Positions 62 through 10,831 of a DNA stretch of 10,879 nt are shown here, one piece after another. The notes below the pieces were generated by a model. The model searched no databases and had not been told where the DNA came from. It saw nothing but the letters and a program-made list of their open reading frames with translations. The stretch covers positions 7,519 through 18,397 of the forward strand of contig JAGTWP010000024.1 of the NCBI GenBank assembly GCA_018260755.1, read 5' to 3'. The stretch's first letter is position 1. The number at the start of each line of letters is the position of its first letter. The DNA is from Candidatus Altarchaeum sp. GTDB lineage: Archaea; Altiarchaeota; Altiarchaeia; Altiarchaeales; Altiarchaeaceae. The translations under genes were made by a program, and so were the position numbers.

Positions 62-1246
62 ATGGATGCAGAAAAACTCAAAGAAATAATAAGGAACGGA
101 GAAAGTTCTACCCTTGAATTCAAGGAAACACTCACCGATAAATTACCCATAGAAAAGGAAATCGTAGCATTTCTAAATTTAAGAGGTGGAAAAATTTTGA
201 TAGGGGTTAGCGATAATAAGGTGATTGTAGGAGTTGATGAGAAGGAGTTAAAAAATATTGAAGAAAAGATTATGAATAAATGCAGGAGTGTTGTAAAGCC
301 GGAAATAATTCCTATATATGAGACGATTTTTGTTGATGGAAAATATGTCATCGTTCTGGAGGTTCGTGGAATTAATAAGCCGTATTATGTCTTCAAAGAT
401 AACAGAAAAACATATTATATCCGAGTGGGAACAACGGAAAGGGAGGCAACAAGGGAAGAGTTGGGAAGGTTGTTTCAAGCATTAGGGATGATATATTATG
501 AAGAGAATCCTGTTTATAATTCCTCTATCAAGGATTTATCAATGGATAAAATTACAGAATATTTTGAAAAATTAAGAGGGGTTATGTTTGAAAATCTGCC
601 CGAAGAAGAAAAGATTAATATCTTGATAAATTCAAAAATTCTTACAAATAGAGATGATAAAATTTTATGTACTGTTTCAGGAATTCTTTTATTTGGGAAA
701 GAACCGACAAAACTTCTTTCACAGAGTGGAATTATTTATGCGTATTTTGAAGGAAATGAAATTTCAGGACATTTGATTGACAGAAAGGAGTTAAATGGAA
801 CAATCGTTGAAAATATCATAAATATTTGCAAAATAATAAAATTAAATTTACAACGTAGTTCAAAGATAGAAGGTTTAGAAAGGGTTGAAAAAGAAGAAAT
901 TCCTGAAAGAGTTATAAGAGAGACGATAGCAAATGCATGCATTCATAGGGATTATACAATTTACGGAGCAAAAATTAGGGCCTTTATGTTTGATGATAGA
1001 TTAGAAATCAGAAGTCCGGGAGTTCCGCCAAATACTGTAAATGTGGAGAGTATGAAAACCGGAATTTCTGTTTATAGAAATCCAATAATTGTAAGATTTA
1101 TTAACGATTATCATCTTGCCGAAGGTATGGGCAGAGGAATTCCTATGATAATAAAGGAGATGAATAAAATTTCAGGAAAAGAACCAAAAATAGAGGTTTT
1201 GGAAAATGAAACAAATTTGATAATTTATTTTCCAAAAAGGAAATAA
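62..1246 (+). CDS. AlbA_2 (Schlafen-type) / HATPase_c_4 putative transcriptional regulator
   Basis: This 394-residue protein has the two-domain layout of the family often annotated as ATP-binding protein, putative transcriptional regulator or RecG-related. Residues about 10-135 form an AlbA_2 domain: the start STLEFKE (16-22), then FLNLRGGKILIGVSD (37-51), then a YYIRVGTTEREATREEL segment (118-134). Residues about 280-372 form a GHKL-like ATPase domain (HATPase_c_4) with RETIANACIHRDY (286-298), where Glu287 and Asn291 sit in an N-box-like position, and a glycine motif GMGRGI (355-360). Members of the family often carry a winged-helix tail after the ATPase domain; this one stops about 25 residues after it, so DNA binding would rest on the AlbA_2 part. 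ATG 62 immediately precedes the conserved domain, and there is no room for a longer start. The biological role in this organism is unknown. Family membership is clear; function is inference. Confidence 0.9.
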   Translation: MDAEKLKEIIRNGESSTLEFKETLTDKLPIEKEIVAFLNLRGGKILIGVSDNKVIVGVDEKELKNIEEKIMNKCRSVVKPEIIPIYETIFVDGKYVIVLEVRGINKPYYVFKDNRKTYYIRVGTTEREATREELGRLFQALGMIYYEENPVYNSSIKDLSMDKITEYFEKLRGVMFENLPEEEKINILINSKILTNRDDKILCTVSGILLFGKEPTKLLSQSGIIYAYFEGNEISGHLIDRKELNGTIVENIINICKIIKLNLQRSSKIEGLERVEKEEIPERVIRETIANACIHRDYTIYGAKIRAFMFDDRLEIRSPGVPPNTVNVESMKTGISVYRNPIIVRFINDYHLAEGMGRGIPMIIKEMNKISGKEPKIEVLENETNLIIYFPKRK

Positions 1247-3433: not shown

Positions 3434-3454
3434 AAGACAATTTAAAAATAAAAA

Positions 3455-3529
3455 CGGGCCTGACGGGATTTGAACCCGTGATCTACAGCTTAGAAGGCTG
3501 TCGCCTTATCCAAGCTAGGCTACAGGTCC
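3455..3529 (-). tRNA. tRNA-Arg (UCU)
   Basis: Read on the minus strand the gene folds as a full cloverleaf: acceptor GGACCTG with CAGGCCC, D stem GCCT with AGGC, anticodon stem ACAGC with GCTGT and loop CTTCTAA (anticodon TCT, reading AGA), and T stem ACGGG with CCCGT around TTCAAAT. The discriminator base is G. CCA is not encoded and no intron interrupts the anticodon loop. All stems are perfect except acceptor pair 3-70, which is A opposite C. AGA is expected to be the main Arg codon in such an AT-rich genome, so the gene should be needed. A TATA-like box (TTTAAATA, minus strand, about 3565-3572) lies upstream. Confidence 0.95.
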
Positions 3530-3564
3530 ATAAAATTTAATAAAATTTAAATTTATCGAACAAC

Positions 3565-6296: not shown

Positions 6297-6884
6297 ATGA
6301 TACTATCAGACAAAGATATAAAAGAAGCACTTAAAAAAGGACAAATTAGCATAGAACCATTGTTGGATGCCGAACTTCAAATTCAGCCGTCTTCCGTTGA
6401 TTTGCGGTTGGGAAACGAGTTTCGTCTTTTTAAGTATGTTGAAATGCCTTTTATAGATCCGCGAAATAAAGCCAATACAAGTTTCGAAATAACCGAATTA
6501 AGAAGTATTAAAGATGGCGAGCGGTTTATTGTTCATCCCGGTGATTTTTTGCTCGGGACAACATTGGAATATATTAAAGTTCCAGCAGATATGGTGGCAC
6601 GATTAGAGGGAAGAAGCAGTATGGGAAGATTGGGCTTGATTATTCACAGCACGGCAGGTTATATTGACCCCGGATTTGAAGGAAAAATCACACTTGAAAT
6701 TTCAAATCTGGGAAAAATGCCCGTAGCTTTATATGCAAAGATGAGAATATGTCAGATTGTGTTTGAGAAAATGACATCACCTGCGGAAAGACCTTACGGA
6801 GCAGGCAGGGGCTCAAAGTATCAAAAGCAGGAACATCCGGAAGAAAGTAAAATTTCACAGGACAAGGAATTCAAAAGGTCTTAA
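6297..6884 (+). CDS. dcd: dCTP deaminase (possibly bifunctional dCTP deaminase/dUTPase)
   Basis: The enzyme deaminates dCTP to dUTP, feeding dUMP and thymidylate synthesis. The 195-residue protein has the trimeric dUTPase-fold motifs of Dcd: IQPSSVDLRLGNEF (29-42), HPGDFLLG (80-87), ARLEGRSSMGRLGL (101-114), HSTAGYIDPGFEGKITLEI (117-135, with Glu134 as the expected catalytic glutamate) and the C-terminal PYGAGRGSKYQKQ arm (166-178) that closes over the nucleotide. The archaeal enzyme from Methanocaldococcus also hydrolyses dUTP to dUMP, and the HSTAGYIDPGF region is compatible with that, but bifunctionality cannot be decided by eye. The last 18 residues are a charged tail outside the core. 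ATG 6297 lies 38 bp after the stress-protein stop. A small inverted repeat (GTAAA/TTTAC) follows the stop. Confidence 0.95.
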   Translation: MILSDKDIKEALKKGQISIEPLLDAELQIQPSSVDLRLGNEFRLFKYVEMPFIDPRNKANTSFEITELRSIKDGERFIVHPGDFLLGTTLEYIKVPADMVARLEGRSSMGRLGLIIHSTAGYIDPGFEGKITLEISNLGKMPVALYAKMRICQIVFEKMTSPAERPYGAGRGSKYQKQEHPEESKISQDKEFKRS

Positions 6885-7006
6885 ATGTAAATTTTTACCG
6901 ATAAAATTTATGCAAGCCAAGAAAGCCCTTCAGGCAAACACTATGCTCTACCTGTGATTTAATTCCGAGCAATTATTTTGCTTCCAAATATATTTTTTTC
7001 TGTTTT

Positions 7007-7434
7007 TTATCGAGGAGATCCCTTATAATAGCTAATAAAACACTTAATAAACCGCATTTTGAACCTACTACTTTCTCTACAACTTAACATCTTTTCTACT
7101 TCTGCTATTTCAACATCCCTAAGCTTATCCTTATATAACCTTAAATATCTCCTAATTGTGCTCGTCTAAGAAAATATCTTTTACTGTTATTTCGTTGTTT
7201 GCCTTAACAACCATATCCAACCTGTAAAGCAGCAGGATACATATCCTATAAAATGAATTGTTATATTTATTAATTGTATAAATTTTAATCGCTCATATAC
7301 CTATTATCATTGAACTTTTGTGTTTTGCATTTTATAGTGTATTTGAACTTGGATTGATATTTGAACTTGTGCTTGAATTTTAAAATTTGCAAAAATTCAA
7401 CAATGTGTTTATCTCTATCAGTGAAAATCAACAT
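7007..7434 (-). pseudogene. Decayed coding sequence with two frameshifts, family unknown
   Basis: The gap 6885-7497 has no intact gene, but three consecutive open stretches on the minus strand read like one broken protein. The first starts at ATG 7432-7434 (MLIFTDRDKHIVEFLQILKF onward) and stops at 7285-7287. Reading continues in another frame over 7155-7292 (including LDMVVKANNEITVKDIFLDE), then in the third over 7007-7165 (IRRYLRLYKDKLRDVEIAEV, then a Lys/Arg/Phe-rich end, stop at 7007-7009). Each frame takes over where the previous one ends, and the amino-acid usage is protein-like. The joined product would be about 145 residues, perhaps a helix-turn-helix type protein; that is a guess. 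In A/T-rich DNA, frames of about 50 codons can occur by chance, so confidence is limited. Apart from this, 6885-7006 and 7435-7497 show nothing recognisable. Confidence 0.4.
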
Positions 7435-7497
7435 AAGAGCGTTAAATTTATTGCTCTGTCAATATTTTTTGAAATTTTCATCAGGAAGTTTGTCTCT

Positions 7498-9198
7498 CTA
7501 AATAGTTAGGTTGATTATTCTCTCAATTTCCTCAATCTTTCCTACCTTTCTTATTTCAACTCCTGCCATGTCTTTTAAATTTTCAGTTTCAGGGTAAAAA
7601 CGATTACCATGATAGTAATAGGATGTTTCTTCGGGTAAAATTTTTAAGATAGTGAAGTTGATTTTTTTGTAATTATTTTTGAAAGGGAAACTTACACTCA
7701 AAGTATAATTTTTTGTTATATTATTACAATTATTTTCATACAATGAAGAAGGATCACAAAAAGTTAGTAATGCAAAAATCTTGACTTCATCATCTTTTTT
7801 AATGGTGTCAAATGGAATAAATTTTGCATTTTCTCCTGCCTCAAATGAAACCTGTTCTCTATCACTGATGTTTTCATTTAATTCCCAATATAATTCTTCC
7901 ATTCCGAATCCAATTTTGCCTTTATTGTCTTCTGAATAAAAGCAAATGTCCTCTATTTTTTCACAACATTCATTAATGTGTGTTCCTATATTCATTTTCG
8001 CATAAATTTTTGTTTTGTTATCTTCTTTTTTTACAGAGAACCTATAAACATTCTTAAATTTCTTTAACGTAATTTTATGTTTTTCAACTTCAATTATAAA
8101 TGTTAACATATCAGTTTTTACAAACAACACACTCTCATTTAACCATTCGGTTTGAGGATTACTTAAATATCCCTTGTATTTTCTGCCATCAACAGATTCT
8201 AAAAATTTTAATATTTCATTAGTATTGTTAATGTAATTTCCAATTAGATCTTCACGAGGTAAGGACGCCTTTAAAGTGGCAAAATTTTTATCCAAATCAA
8301 CAATAAATCTGTCACCTATGATTAAACTTTTGTTATCTTTACTTTTAAATATTTTTTCTTTTCCTTCCAACCCCCATAATTCAAAATATTTTAAAATCCT
8401 TTTCTTTTCTTTTTCATCAAATTCCCATTCAAATGAAAAATCAGATATTTTATTTTTATTGATATTTGGTATAGAGATATATTTTTCCCACATAGCGGGT
8501 TGAGGTGGTCGTGATCCTATCCAATAACCAACCTCCATAAAATAAAGATTTCCACTATTTGACTTTGTGTTTTTAAAACCCATCGTTCCATCCAACCCTA
8601 CCGCAAGATCACACTTACAATGCCCTTCAGGTATATTAATAATATTGATTCCATATATTTTCAAATTTTCTTCATTTTTAATTTCAACAGGAAGCATTGC
8701 ACTACATCCACATCCATGACCAAAGGTGTAATAACTATCAAATAGGTAATGCTCCAATGGAAAGTATGAAGAATGAAAATCAGTCCATGAAAAATAAGAA
8801 TTATTTCCATAGTAATACATCGGAGGAATATACTCGTCATACGGCTCAATATCTTCCAACAACTTTTTCTTTGGAGAAAGAACTGAAAAACAATAGATTG
8901 AAGTATAGTTTTGTTTCTCTGTCAAATTTGAACCGACATTTTTTCCAATGTTTGAGGTTTTGTTTTCAGTTTCATTTTTATTTTTAGTTATGTTTCCGTT
9001 TCCTGTATTTCCGTTCCCTTTATTTATTTCTGATAAATTTTGCAGAACACTATAATTTTTCTCACTATAATTTTTGTCTTCAATGTTCGTAATGTTTGCC
9101 TTTTTATCCTCTTCTATAAAATTATAAATAAGAAATCCTAAAAAAATCAAGAATAGAAAAACAACAAAAGGCAGAACATTATTTTTATTTTGTTGCAT
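7498..9198 (-). CDS. Membrane-anchored, sequon-rich extracellular protein of unknown family
   Basis: The protein has 566 residues from ATG 9196-9198. A GTG 15 bp further upstream would add five residues and overlap the protease gene; the ATG is preferred because GGTGGTG, close to the archaeal Shine-Dalgarno GGAGGTG, lies 9 nt before it. Residues about 8-28 (VLPFVVFLFLIFLGFLIYNF) form one hydrophobic segment, a signal anchor that places the rest outside the cell. Residues about 30-100 are an Asn/Lys/Gly/Ser-rich linker with at least eight N-x-S/T sites for archaeal N-glycosylation. The remaining part looks globular and beta-rich, with cysteines in tight groups: GHGCGC (160-165), GHCKC (192-196), NECCEKIEDIC and CDPSS...NNC nearer the end. 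These could be disulfides or metal sites. No domain is recognised. It follows the serine protease by 2 nt, so the two are surely cotranscribed and probably act together. Confidence 0.8.
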   Translation of the reverse strand: MQQNKNNVLPFVVFLFLIFLGFLIYNFIEEDKKANITNIEDKNYSEKNYSVLQNLSEINKGNGNTGNGNITKNKNETENKTSNIGKNVGSNLTEKQNYTSIYCFSVLSPKKKLLEDIEPYDEYIPPMYYYGNNSYFSWTDFHSSYFPLEHYLFDSYYTFGHGCGCSAMLPVEIKNEENLKIYGINIINIPEGHCKCDLAVGLDGTMGFKNTKSNSGNLYFMEVGYWIGSRPPQPAMWEKYISIPNINKNKISDFSFEWEFDEKEKKRILKYFELWGLEGKEKIFKSKDNKSLIIGDRFIVDLDKNFATLKASLPREDLIGNYINNTNEILKFLESVDGRKYKGYLSNPQTEWLNESVLFVKTDMLTFIIEVEKHKITLKKFKNVYRFSVKKEDNKTKIYAKMNIGTHINECCEKIEDICFYSEDNKGKIGFGMEELYWELNENISDREQVSFEAGENAKFIPFDTIKKDDEVKIFALLTFCDPSSLYENNCNNITKNYTLSVSFPFKNNYKKINFTILKILPEETSYYYHGNRFYPETENLKDMAGVEIRKVGKIEEIERIINLTI

Positions 9199-9200
9199 TT

Positions 9201-10775
9201 TTATAAACACCACCCAATATCTGATACAGAAAGAGACCCGGTATATTTTTCTACATTACTTATTGAACTATAAGCACCCGCATAACCACTTCCACTCCAT
9301 TGTGGGCAAGTACCCCAAGCAACACCGCAAATCTTTACTTTAATCTCTCCACAACTTTCATATTTTTTATATACTGCTGCCCCACTATCTCCCCTGTATA
9401 TATAAAAAGAAGCAATAGTTTGATCATATCTCCACACCCAACTATCTGACGGAAGGCAATCCTTATGACGCTCTACAACCCGTCCACAGGTCTCACCAGT
9501 TCTTATACCTCCTTTACATACTTGTTCTCCTATCCATCCTCCATAATCTATCTTGCCTATTACTTCATAATTTTCATACATCTTAGAACATATTTCCAAT
9601 GTTGTTGGAATCCATGCAACATCGGCATACACATAACCAGGATTGTTTGAAAAAGAGTTTATTGATACTTTTCCAATATAGTCAGGGGATGCAGGTTGAT
9701 AAACATTAACATTTGTAGATCCACAATGACCCGCAGTAATAACACCACTTTCTCCACTGTGCCTAGCTACAAATCCTTGTGTGCAGGCACCATTTCCTAA
9801 CGTTATTTTTATTCCTCCAAACAATGGCCTATATTTAGCATTTCTAGAAAATTCTTCACAATCTGTTGCTTTTTCTATGTATATGTTGTTCACAGGTATC
9901 TTCATAATATTTAGATATGTGTATATGTCATTTAACGTTTCATTATTAATTTCACGTAAACCTATAATAATTCCGTTCAAAGATAAGGAAGCAGTAAGAG
10001 TTGCAACGTTACTAATATTTATTTCTCTGATATTTTTTTTCTGTTCTAACAACTGCTTTTCTGTATATTTTCCTTTCAAAAACACAACATTTGCTCCTTT
10101 ATTAATATGTGGCTTCAAAATTTCCTTTATCTTTTTCTTGTCCTTATCGTCATTCAAATAAACGAAAATCAATCCTCCATCTTCATCAACAGCCAGCCCT
10201 CCATAAGAATCTAAATTTTCAATTTTCTTTGCTACATCCTCAACAACCACTTCTCTAAAAACAAATCTAAAAATTTCTTTTTCGTTCATTCCTTCAATAA
10301 AATTGTTCGTTTCTTTTATTCTTTTAATTAAAGCACTGATGTTTAATATTCTTTCTTGTTCTTTCATTTTGTTAATTTCCAACGAAAGCAACTTTTCTTT
10401 CGCCTCTTTTTTCAATTCCTCAACATTTAGTTTTTCAGCATTTTCATAGGCAAACCCATCAAATTTTTCTGAATTTTTTAAATCAAAGCATTTGCTCCAC
10501 GGATAAATTATTTCTTTTTCTGTCCATTTTCCATATTCGTAAACCCAATAGTTTTCCTTTATACAGTCATCATCATTGGTTGTATTATCTACACCTGCTA
10601 TTTTTATATTTGGTTCTTTCGCAGGTTTTGCATTATTGTCATCTCCCTGAGCATTCACAACTGCAAATACTATTCCAACCAGAAGTGCTAATAGCACTCC
10701 ATATATTGCTATTTGCCCAACCCTTTCAACAGCTCTCTCAAGGGCATTGGAGGTATTTTTTATTGTATTTGTCAT
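9201..10775 (-). CDS. Secreted/anchored S1 serine protease (alpha-lytic/streptogrisin-like) with pro-region
   Basis: The protein has 524 residues. Residues about 22-42 (IAIYGVLLALLVGIVFAVVNA) form a signal peptide or anchor, with a plausible cleavage point after Ala42. A long pro-region (43 to about 316) follows, including GLAVDEDGGLIFVYLN (193-208) and a later beta/alpha stretch (265-300) that resemble the pro-domains which fold alpha-lytic protease. The catalytic domain starts near FGGIKITLGNGACTQGF (319-335) and is about 205 residues, like the bacterial enzymes. The triad is complete: His350 in ITAGHC, Asp385 in YADVAW, Ser464 in RGDSGAAV. Cys331-Cys351 and Cys420-Cys430 (VCKGGIRTGETCG) match the two disulfides of streptogrisins. 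The usual GDSGG reads GDSGA here. It acts outside the cell. Start ATG 10773-10775 gives a normal signal region. First gene of a two-gene operon. Confidence 0.93.
   Translation of the reverse strand: MTNTIKNTSNALERAVERVGQIAIYGVLLALLVGIVFAVVNAQGDDNNAKPAKEPNIKIAGVDNTTNDDDCIKENYWVYEYGKWTEKEIIYPWSKCFDLKNSEKFDGFAYENAEKLNVEELKKEAKEKLLSLEINKMKEQERILNISALIKRIKETNNFIEGMNEKEIFRFVFREVVVEDVAKKIENLDSYGGLAVDEDGGLIFVYLNDDKDKKKIKEILKPHINKGANVVFLKGKYTEKQLLEQKKNIREINISNVATLTASLSLNGIIIGLREINNETLNDIYTYLNIMKIPVNNIYIEKATDCEEFSRNAKYRPLFGGIKITLGNGACTQGFVARHSGESGVITAGHCGSTNVNVYQPASPDYIGKVSINSFSNNPGYVYADVAWIPTTLEICSKMYENYEVIGKIDYGGWIGEQVCKGGIRTGETCGRVVERHKDCLPSDSWVWRYDQTIASFYIYRGDSGAAVYKKYESCGEIKVKICGVAWGTCPQWSGSGYAGAYSSISNVEKYTGSLSVSDIGWCL
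9208..9214 (-). promoter_or_regulatory. Shine-Dalgarno-like site setting the start of the downstream operon gene
   Basis: On the minus strand GGTGGTG differs from the archaeal consensus GGAGGTG at one base. Its 9-nt distance to ATG 9196-9198 is good for initiation. It lies within the last codons of the protease gene. Most other starts in this window lack such a site and look leaderless, so its presence here fits an internal operon gene. Confidence 0.55.
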
Positions 10776-10795
10776 ATTTGTTTTGTTTAATTTAT

Positions 10796-10831
10796 TACTT
10801 ATTTTTATCGCTCTTATACTTATTTTTATCG
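10796..10831. promoter_or_regulatory. Paired 15-bp direct repeats in the protease operon leader
   Basis: TACTTATTTTTATCG occurs exactly at 10796-10810 and 10817-10831, 21 bp apart, which is two helical turns. Both copies lie 21-56 bp upstream of the protease ATG. TATA-like words on the minus strand lie further out: TTATAAAT (plus 10841-10848) and TTTAAATA (plus about 10862-10869). Transcription would then start near or within the repeats. That is the position of an archaeal repressor operator. The 3-nt word TCG at the end of each copy stands out in the A/T background. Confidence 0.55.

What the first reader, a model, noticed from the sequence alone, without database searches (positions are those of the whole stretch)
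9201..10775. Bacterial-style S1 serine protease with long pro-region in an archaeon
The complete His350/Asp385/Ser464 triad, streptogrisin-like disulfides and pro-region are typical of actinobacterial and proteobacterial secreted enzymes and uncommon in archaea. The membrane anchor and the GDSGA variant of the serine motif add interest. Uses could include surface remodelling, attack on neighbours or symbiont interaction.
Basis: partly seen in the sequence, partly recalled or inferred. Interest (0 to 1): 0.6.

Follow-up and report, generated by a model that had tools for sequence, protein, structure and literature searches.

The report
Archaeal secreted protease with linked partner
This archaeal gene encodes a secreted digestive-type protease that belongs to a patchy archaeal family, not a recent gift from bacteria, and its relatives in heat-loving Thermococcaceae sit in mix-and-match gene pairs laid out like bacterial toxin and antidote genes.

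Summary
Window 9201-10775 (minus strand) encodes a 524-aa secreted S1 serine protease with triad H350/D385/S464, an alpha-lytic/streptogrisin-type fold (Z 22) and a long pro-region. Three readings need correcting. The "membrane anchor" is more likely a signal peptide. GDSGA/GDSGS is the rule among archaeal relatives. Full-length relatives with the same pro-region occur in Thermococcaceae, and the tree puts the window on the archaeal side, with weak support. "Bacterial enzyme in an archaeon" is therefore only partly right.

The surprise is the arrangement. In 17 of 18 archaeal loci read, a gene for an exported, usually membrane-anchored protein follows the protease at once (2 nt in the window). 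In Thermococcaceae the leader and pro-region are constant, while catalytic domain and partner are exchanged together, leaving displaced protease tails and intact orphan partners. In three other archaeal genomes the partner is a stand-alone copy of the pro-domain. In the window's genome the leader cassette also heads a matrixin-like metalloprotease, a DUF7689 protein and a protease-less pro-domain.

Best reading: a polymorphic secreted-peptidase/partner module whose partner restrains the protease at the producer's surface. Inhibition, toxicity and delivery are inferred; P0002 has no recognisable fold.

The parts
9201..10775 (-). secreted S1 serine protease precursor, 524 aa
   Evidence: ORF and triad; homology; fold
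10650..10775 (-). leader, residues 1-42: probable Sec signal peptide ending VNA|QG
   Evidence: hydrophobic stretch 22-40; same leader on 3 other proteins of the genome and one of a congener
10644..10805 (-). leader DNA cassette (leader codons plus about 30 nt upstream of ATG), shared at DNA level (94% to the search copy; other own copies 92-94%)
10440..10598 (-). outer pro-segment, residues 60-112, with invariant C71 and C96 and the YWV..W motif
   Evidence: conserved in Thermococcaceae
9867..10229 (-). pro-domain core, residues 183-303 (predicted beta-beta-alpha-beta, alpha, beta-beta-alpha-beta)
   Evidence: homologous to Thermococcaceae pro-region; secondary structure; window pro-region vs archaeal pro-region profile P 3e-25, archaeal pro-region profile vs streptogrisin pro-region P 8e-4
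9204..9827 (-). catalytic domain, residues 317-524: H350, D385, S464
7498..9198 (-). adjoining partner gene P0002, 566 aa: N-terminal hydrophobic anchor, Asn-rich linker, extracytoplasmic part; ATG 2 nt after the protease stop
   Evidence: a relative in congener G003 carries the protease's leader and has no protease beside it

Best explanation
The window encodes a two-gene unit: a Sec-exported S1 protease zymogen and, 2 nt downstream, a membrane-anchored extracytoplasmic partner. SHOWN from sequence: leader, archaeal-type pro-region, complete triad and alpha-lytic fold; tight gene adjacency; the leader is a shared cassette. SHOWN in Thermococcaceae relatives: a constant leader and pro-region joined to exchangeable catalytic domains, each with a matching partner family, plus displaced catalytic tails and intact partners lacking a protease. 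INFERRED: the pro-region guides folding and blocks the active site until cleaved outside the cell, as in alpha-lytic protease. The partner stays on the producer's surface and restrains the matured protease, so the cell is protected while proteins of neighbours, or proteins in the surroundings, are cut. That is an antagonism module laid out like a polymorphic toxin and its immunity protein, but exported by a simple signal peptide. Rough step confidences: secreted S1 zymogen 0.95; member of an archaeal mosaic family 0.8; partner acts as inhibitor or immunity protein 0.45; use in conflict rather than nutrition 0.4.
For: Homologues and fold. Adjacency: 17 of 18 archaeal loci read have a partner ORF right downstream, most within 20 nt, nearly all with a hydrophobic N-terminus. 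Mosaic structure: the inner pro-region is 68-83% identical among 11 Thermococcaceae loci, whereas catalytic domains fall into types A/B/B'/C (28-96%). Partner similarity follows catalytic similarity (Mantel r 0.66, p 0.0005) and not pro-region similarity (r 0.12, p 0.20). Two genera share about 360 nt at 98-100% at the 5' end and then carry different catalytic types. Of 10 A-type partners, 3 have a protease with pro-region and catalytic domain upstream (one frameshifted), 5 only C-terminal remains and 2 none. All partner ORFs are full length, with pairwise dN/dS 0.07-0.30. The leader also heads C39-like peptidases and other proteins. In G279, G469 and G339 the partner is a copy of the neighbouring protease's pro-domain (E 4e-22, 3e-17, 6e-22), a domain class that in alpha-lytic protease is a tight inhibitor (established knowledge).
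Against: No partner has been shown to bind or inhibit anything. P0002 is not similar to any Thermococcaceae partner or to a pro-domain and its model is useless (pLDDT 34). Swapping was seen in Thermococcaceae, not in the window's lineage, where only one complete protease is known. L049 and L051 have 96% identical catalytic domains but partners only about 43% identical, which fits strict cognate specificity poorly. Part of the purifying-selection signal predates protease loss, and one orphan pair (L187/L191) has identical tails but diverged partners, so it is probably recombinant. No toxin-delivery apparatus was found.
Confidence: 0.45

Rival explanations
1. Ordinary nutritional exoprotease: the zymogen is secreted to digest environmental protein, and the partner is an anchoring, folding or maturation factor. 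The mosaic reflects routine recombination at a variable locus, with no antagonism.
For: Thermococcaceae grow on peptides (established knowledge; also stated in PMC8416519). Several peptidase types share the leader, as expected of a generic secretion cassette.
Against: Intact partners persist without a full protease in 7 of 10 A-type loci, which a maturation factor should not. Partner family tracks catalytic type.
Confidence: 0.3
2. The partner is a trans-acting foldase (intermolecular pro-domain) needed to fold the protease, like the foldases of secreted lipases, with protection as a side effect.
For: In three archaeal genomes the partner is a copy of the pro-domain; alpha-lytic pro-domains fold their protease in trans (established knowledge).
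Against: Window and Thermococcaceae proteases already carry a pro-region in cis, and their partners show no pro-domain similarity. Orphan partners and protease-less pro-domains persist.
Confidence: 0.15
3. Recent acquisition of a bacterial streptogrisin or alpha-lytic protease by this archaeon.
For: The relatives with solved structures are bacterial.
Against: Closest full-length relatives are archaeal with the same pro-region; window on the archaeal side of the tree; window pro-region matches the archaeal profile at P 3e-25 but the bacterial one only at P 0.09. Weak tree support means an old transfer is not excluded.
Confidence: 0.1

Closest known systems
Alpha-lytic protease / streptogrisin group (MEROPS S1, chymotrypsin fold)
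   Same: Fold (Z 21-22), triad, two of three disulfides, N-terminal pro-region, secretion
   Different: About 21-24% identity; no hit to Pfam Trypsin or Pro_Al_protease (both hit the bacterial control L182); GDSGA; archaeal-type pro-region with an extra Cys-bearing outer segment; tight downstream partner gene
Thermococcaceae pro-S1 proteases (uncharacterised)
   Same: Same outer and inner pro-region plus catalytic domain; tight downstream exported partner
   Different: Signal peptide is MRWKLL-type; partners belong to other families; pro-region of the window has an insertion of about 40 residues
Polymorphic toxin systems (Zhang 2012, PMC3482391)
   Same: Constant N-terminus, variable C-terminal effector, adjoining partner gene, orphan partners and displaced tails (in Thermococcaceae)
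   Different: Plain signal peptide, no T5/T6/T7 or repeat scaffold; the term 'trypsin' does not occur in the held text; toxicity and immunity untested
VARTIG modules of Thermococcales (PMC8416519)
   Same: Hypervariable exported-protein loci of Thermococcales likened to polymorphic toxin systems
   Different: VARTIG is built on Ig-domain proteins; the held text has no 'trypsin'

Membership tests
S1 alpha-lytic/streptogrisin-type peptidase | chymotrypsin-type double beta-barrel | tested here: met
   VIA-align Z 21-22 to SGPB and alpha-lytic protease over 319-520, on a model of moderate confidence
S1 alpha-lytic/streptogrisin-type peptidase | His-Asp-Ser triad in S1 motifs | tested here: met
   H350, D385, S464 conserved
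S1 alpha-lytic/streptogrisin-type peptidase | three alpha-lytic disulfides | tested here: inconclusive
   two conserved by alignment, the third (Cys before GDSG) absent
S1 alpha-lytic/streptogrisin-type peptidase | alpha-lytic pro-domain (Pfam PF02983) | tested here: inconclusive
   no Pfam hit; archaeal pro-region profile vs streptogrisin pro-regions P 8e-4, window alone P 0.09; secondary structure compatible
S1 alpha-lytic/streptogrisin-type peptidase | proteolytic activity after pro-region removal | not testable with these tools
   needs enzyme assay
Polymorphic toxin system | constant N-terminus with exchangeable C-terminal effector | tested here: inconclusive
   met in Thermococcaceae; in the window's lineage only leader sharing on different proteins is shown
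Polymorphic toxin system | cognate immunity gene right downstream | tested here: inconclusive
   gene adjacent in the window and in 17 of 18 loci; immunity function untested
Polymorphic toxin system | orphan immunity genes and displaced effector tails | tested here: inconclusive
   met in Thermococcaceae; in the window's genus only a lone P0002 relative and a protease-less pro-domain
Polymorphic toxin system | dedicated delivery route (T5/T6/T7, PVC, long repeat scaffold) | tested here: not met
   only a signal-peptide-like leader in the protein; not filed as a member
VARTIG | hypervariable Ig-domain protein | tested here: not met
   no Ig domain hit in P0001 or P0002

The most novel reading that the evidence does not exclude
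Archaea possess a polymorphic, Sec-exported peptidase weapon system: a leader/pro cassette onto which catalytic domains (S1, C39-like and possibly M10) are swapped, each with a surface-anchored inhibitor acting as immunity protein, sometimes a free copy of the pro-domain. The window carries one such pair.
Probability: 0.35. Interest if true: 0.8.

Novelty: new variant of a known kind. Interest (0 to 1): 0.58.

Why it matters
Archaeal antagonism is poorly known. If the partner is an inhibitor, a family of heat-stable secreted proteases with built-in, swappable antidotes is sitting in culturable Thermococcaceae, where the toxin/immunity idea can be tested by gene deletion and simple enzyme inhibition. 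It would also show pro-domains turned into free-standing, membrane-anchored inhibitors. Even if the proteases are only nutritional, the co-swapping of catalytic domain and partner needs explaining.

Tried and rejected
Recent bacterial transfer: not supported. Phage or plasmid origin: no tblastn match in phages or plasmids and none in viral contigs. Leader copies as mobile-element ends: no transposase was seen beside them; the conserved upstream block holds a 42-codon ORF intact in two copies and broken in two, with no Rfam match. VARTIG membership: rejected. P0002 as pro-domain copy: no similarity. P0002 structure: AF2 with two sequences failed, pLDDT 34. Orphan-only selection test on the L187/L191 pair: spoiled, because their tails are identical while the partners differ (that script stopped on a zero division after printing the tails). 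Makarova 2019 on archaeal polymorphic toxins is not held, so prior mention there cannot be excluded.

Full report
OBSERVATION. The minus-strand ORF 9201-10775 (524 aa) is real. It carries H350, D385 and S464 in S1 context. phmmer against solved structures finds Nocardiopsis protease, Thermobifida TFPA and alpha-lytic protease over residues 318-467, E 2e-6 to 1e-4. A profile of the family reaches E 7e-12. The AF2 model (pLDDT 65) matches streptogrisins and alpha-lytic protease at Z 21-22, rmsd 2.5-2.9. Pfam Trypsin does not fire. Two of three alpha-lytic disulfides are conserved. The N-terminal hydrophobic stretch ends in VNA|QG and looks like a signal peptide.

RELATIVES. No other genome of the window's phylum (29 held) has the protease; the only congener match there is the leader. 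Full-length relatives, sharing the outer pro-segment (60-112), the inner pro-domain (183-303) and the catalytic domain, occur in Thermococcaceae (named). Across 394 archaeal genomes the profile hits 17, so the family is archaeal but patchy. In the tree the window lies with archaeal sequences, apart from six actinobacterial ones (68/87, weak). The archaeal pro-region resembles the streptogrisin pro-region in register but weakly (P 8e-4). A second Thermococcus S1 type (L063) groups with the bacterial enzymes (89/85).

LEADER CASSETTE. The first about 50 residues recur, with closely similar DNA (92-94% over about 160 nt in the two longest own matches) and about 30 nt of upstream sequence, on three other proteins of the window's genome: a matrixin-like metalloprotease (Pfam M10, E 2e-10), a 751-aa DUF7689 protein and a 226-aa protein. 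A congener (G003) has it on a 598-aa protein. The 226-aa protein is the pro-domain of the L063-type S1 protease (57% identity) with the catalytic domain missing; it is followed by the same small partner as in Thermococcus (60% identity). No catalytic domain of that type was found elsewhere in the held genome. The G003 protein is a relative of the window's partner P0002 (E 5e-16) and has no protease beside it.

PARTNER. P0002 (7498-9198) starts 2 nt after the protease stop and has an N-terminal hydrophobic segment. In 17 of 18 archaeal protease loci read, an exported-looking ORF follows at once. In G279, G469 and G339 it is a stand-alone copy of that protease's pro-domain, in part with a C-terminal membrane segment. 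G323 has a pro-domain alone with a C-terminal membrane segment.

MOSAIC IN THERMOCOCCACEAE. Among 11 loci the inner pro-region is 68-83% identical, while catalytic domains fall into discrete types. Partner families follow catalytic type (Mantel r 0.66, p 0.0005) and not pro-region (r 0.12, p 0.20). Loci of different genera (L048, L049) share the first about 360 nt at 98-100% and then diverge into different catalytic types. Many loci lie at one hotspot between an MFS transporter and a GNAT gene. The same leader also heads C39-like cysteine peptidases and proteins of unknown type, in several cases with S1 C-terminal tails and their partners left downstream. A-type partners: 3 with a protease upstream (one frameshifted), 5 with only C-terminal remains, 2 with none. 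B-type partners also outnumber intact proteases. Partner ORFs are full length with dN/dS 0.07-0.30, though part of that history predates protease loss and one pair looks recombinant.

MECHANISM. The most likely working is a secreted zymogen restrained first by its pro-region and, after maturation, by a surface-anchored partner that protects the producer. Layout and orphan partners resemble polymorphic toxin systems, but the delivery feature of that family is not met, and inhibition and toxicity are untested. It is therefore described as working like such a system, not filed as a member. Rivals are an ordinary nutritional protease with a maturation factor, and a trans foldase. Retention of partners without protease speaks against both; the 96%/43% identity contrast of L049/L051 speaks against strict cognate specificity.

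LITERATURE. Neither the polymorphic toxin survey (PMC3482391) nor the VARTIG paper (PMC8416519) contains the word trypsin in the held text. The archaeal dark-matter survey (PMC4158269) describes other Thermococcus secreted-protein clusters. The 2019 archaeal toxin survey was not held.

LIMITS. One complete protease in the window's lineage; incomplete, fragmented genome (85% complete, contig end 104 bp upstream); P0002 unmodelled; weak tree support; Thermococcaceae evidence is carried over to the window by homology of the protease and by gene layout, not by homology of the partner.

Noticed in passing
L038 (G000:C64) 6394-7074 and 7087-7533: Leader fused to a protease-less streptogrisin-type pro-domain, followed by a small lipoprotein-like partner; the Thermococcus homologue (L063) has the full protease and the same partner.
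   Followed up: yes
L037 (G000:C56) 14025-15155 and 15509-17764: Same leader on a matrixin-like (M10) metalloprotease and on a 751-aa DUF7689 protein, side by side.
   Followed up: partly
L037 17786-17945 and 15171-15328, L038 6099-6253, L039 about 12000-12175: Conserved block upstream of the leader holding a 42-codon ORF (MITKTAKIMFGFGDSW..MKREPxGDPxRMLK), intact in two copies and broken in two; function unknown.
   Followed up: partly
L127 about 8560-8990 (G003:C84:28588): Leader-like N-terminus on a short cysteine-rich protein in the congener.
   Followed up: no
L096 3061-3786, L098 2946-3953, L100 3084-3572, L097 1945-2658: Free-standing copies of S1 pro-domains, some with a C-terminal membrane segment, beside proteases or alone, in other archaea.
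   Followed up: partly
L169, L171, L172, L174 (Thermococcaceae): Leader MRWKLL/MQWKLL heads C39-like cysteine peptidases with an I69-like pro-segment, each with downstream exported proteins.
   Followed up: partly
L037 4210-13845: Run of paralogous anchored proteins (about 290-310 aa, motif PxFKVGDKFxY) in the window's genome.
   Followed up: no
window 62-1246, 3454-3530: Schlafen/AlbA_2 ATPase-like gene at the left end; tRNA-Arg (tct) on the minus strand.
   Followed up: no
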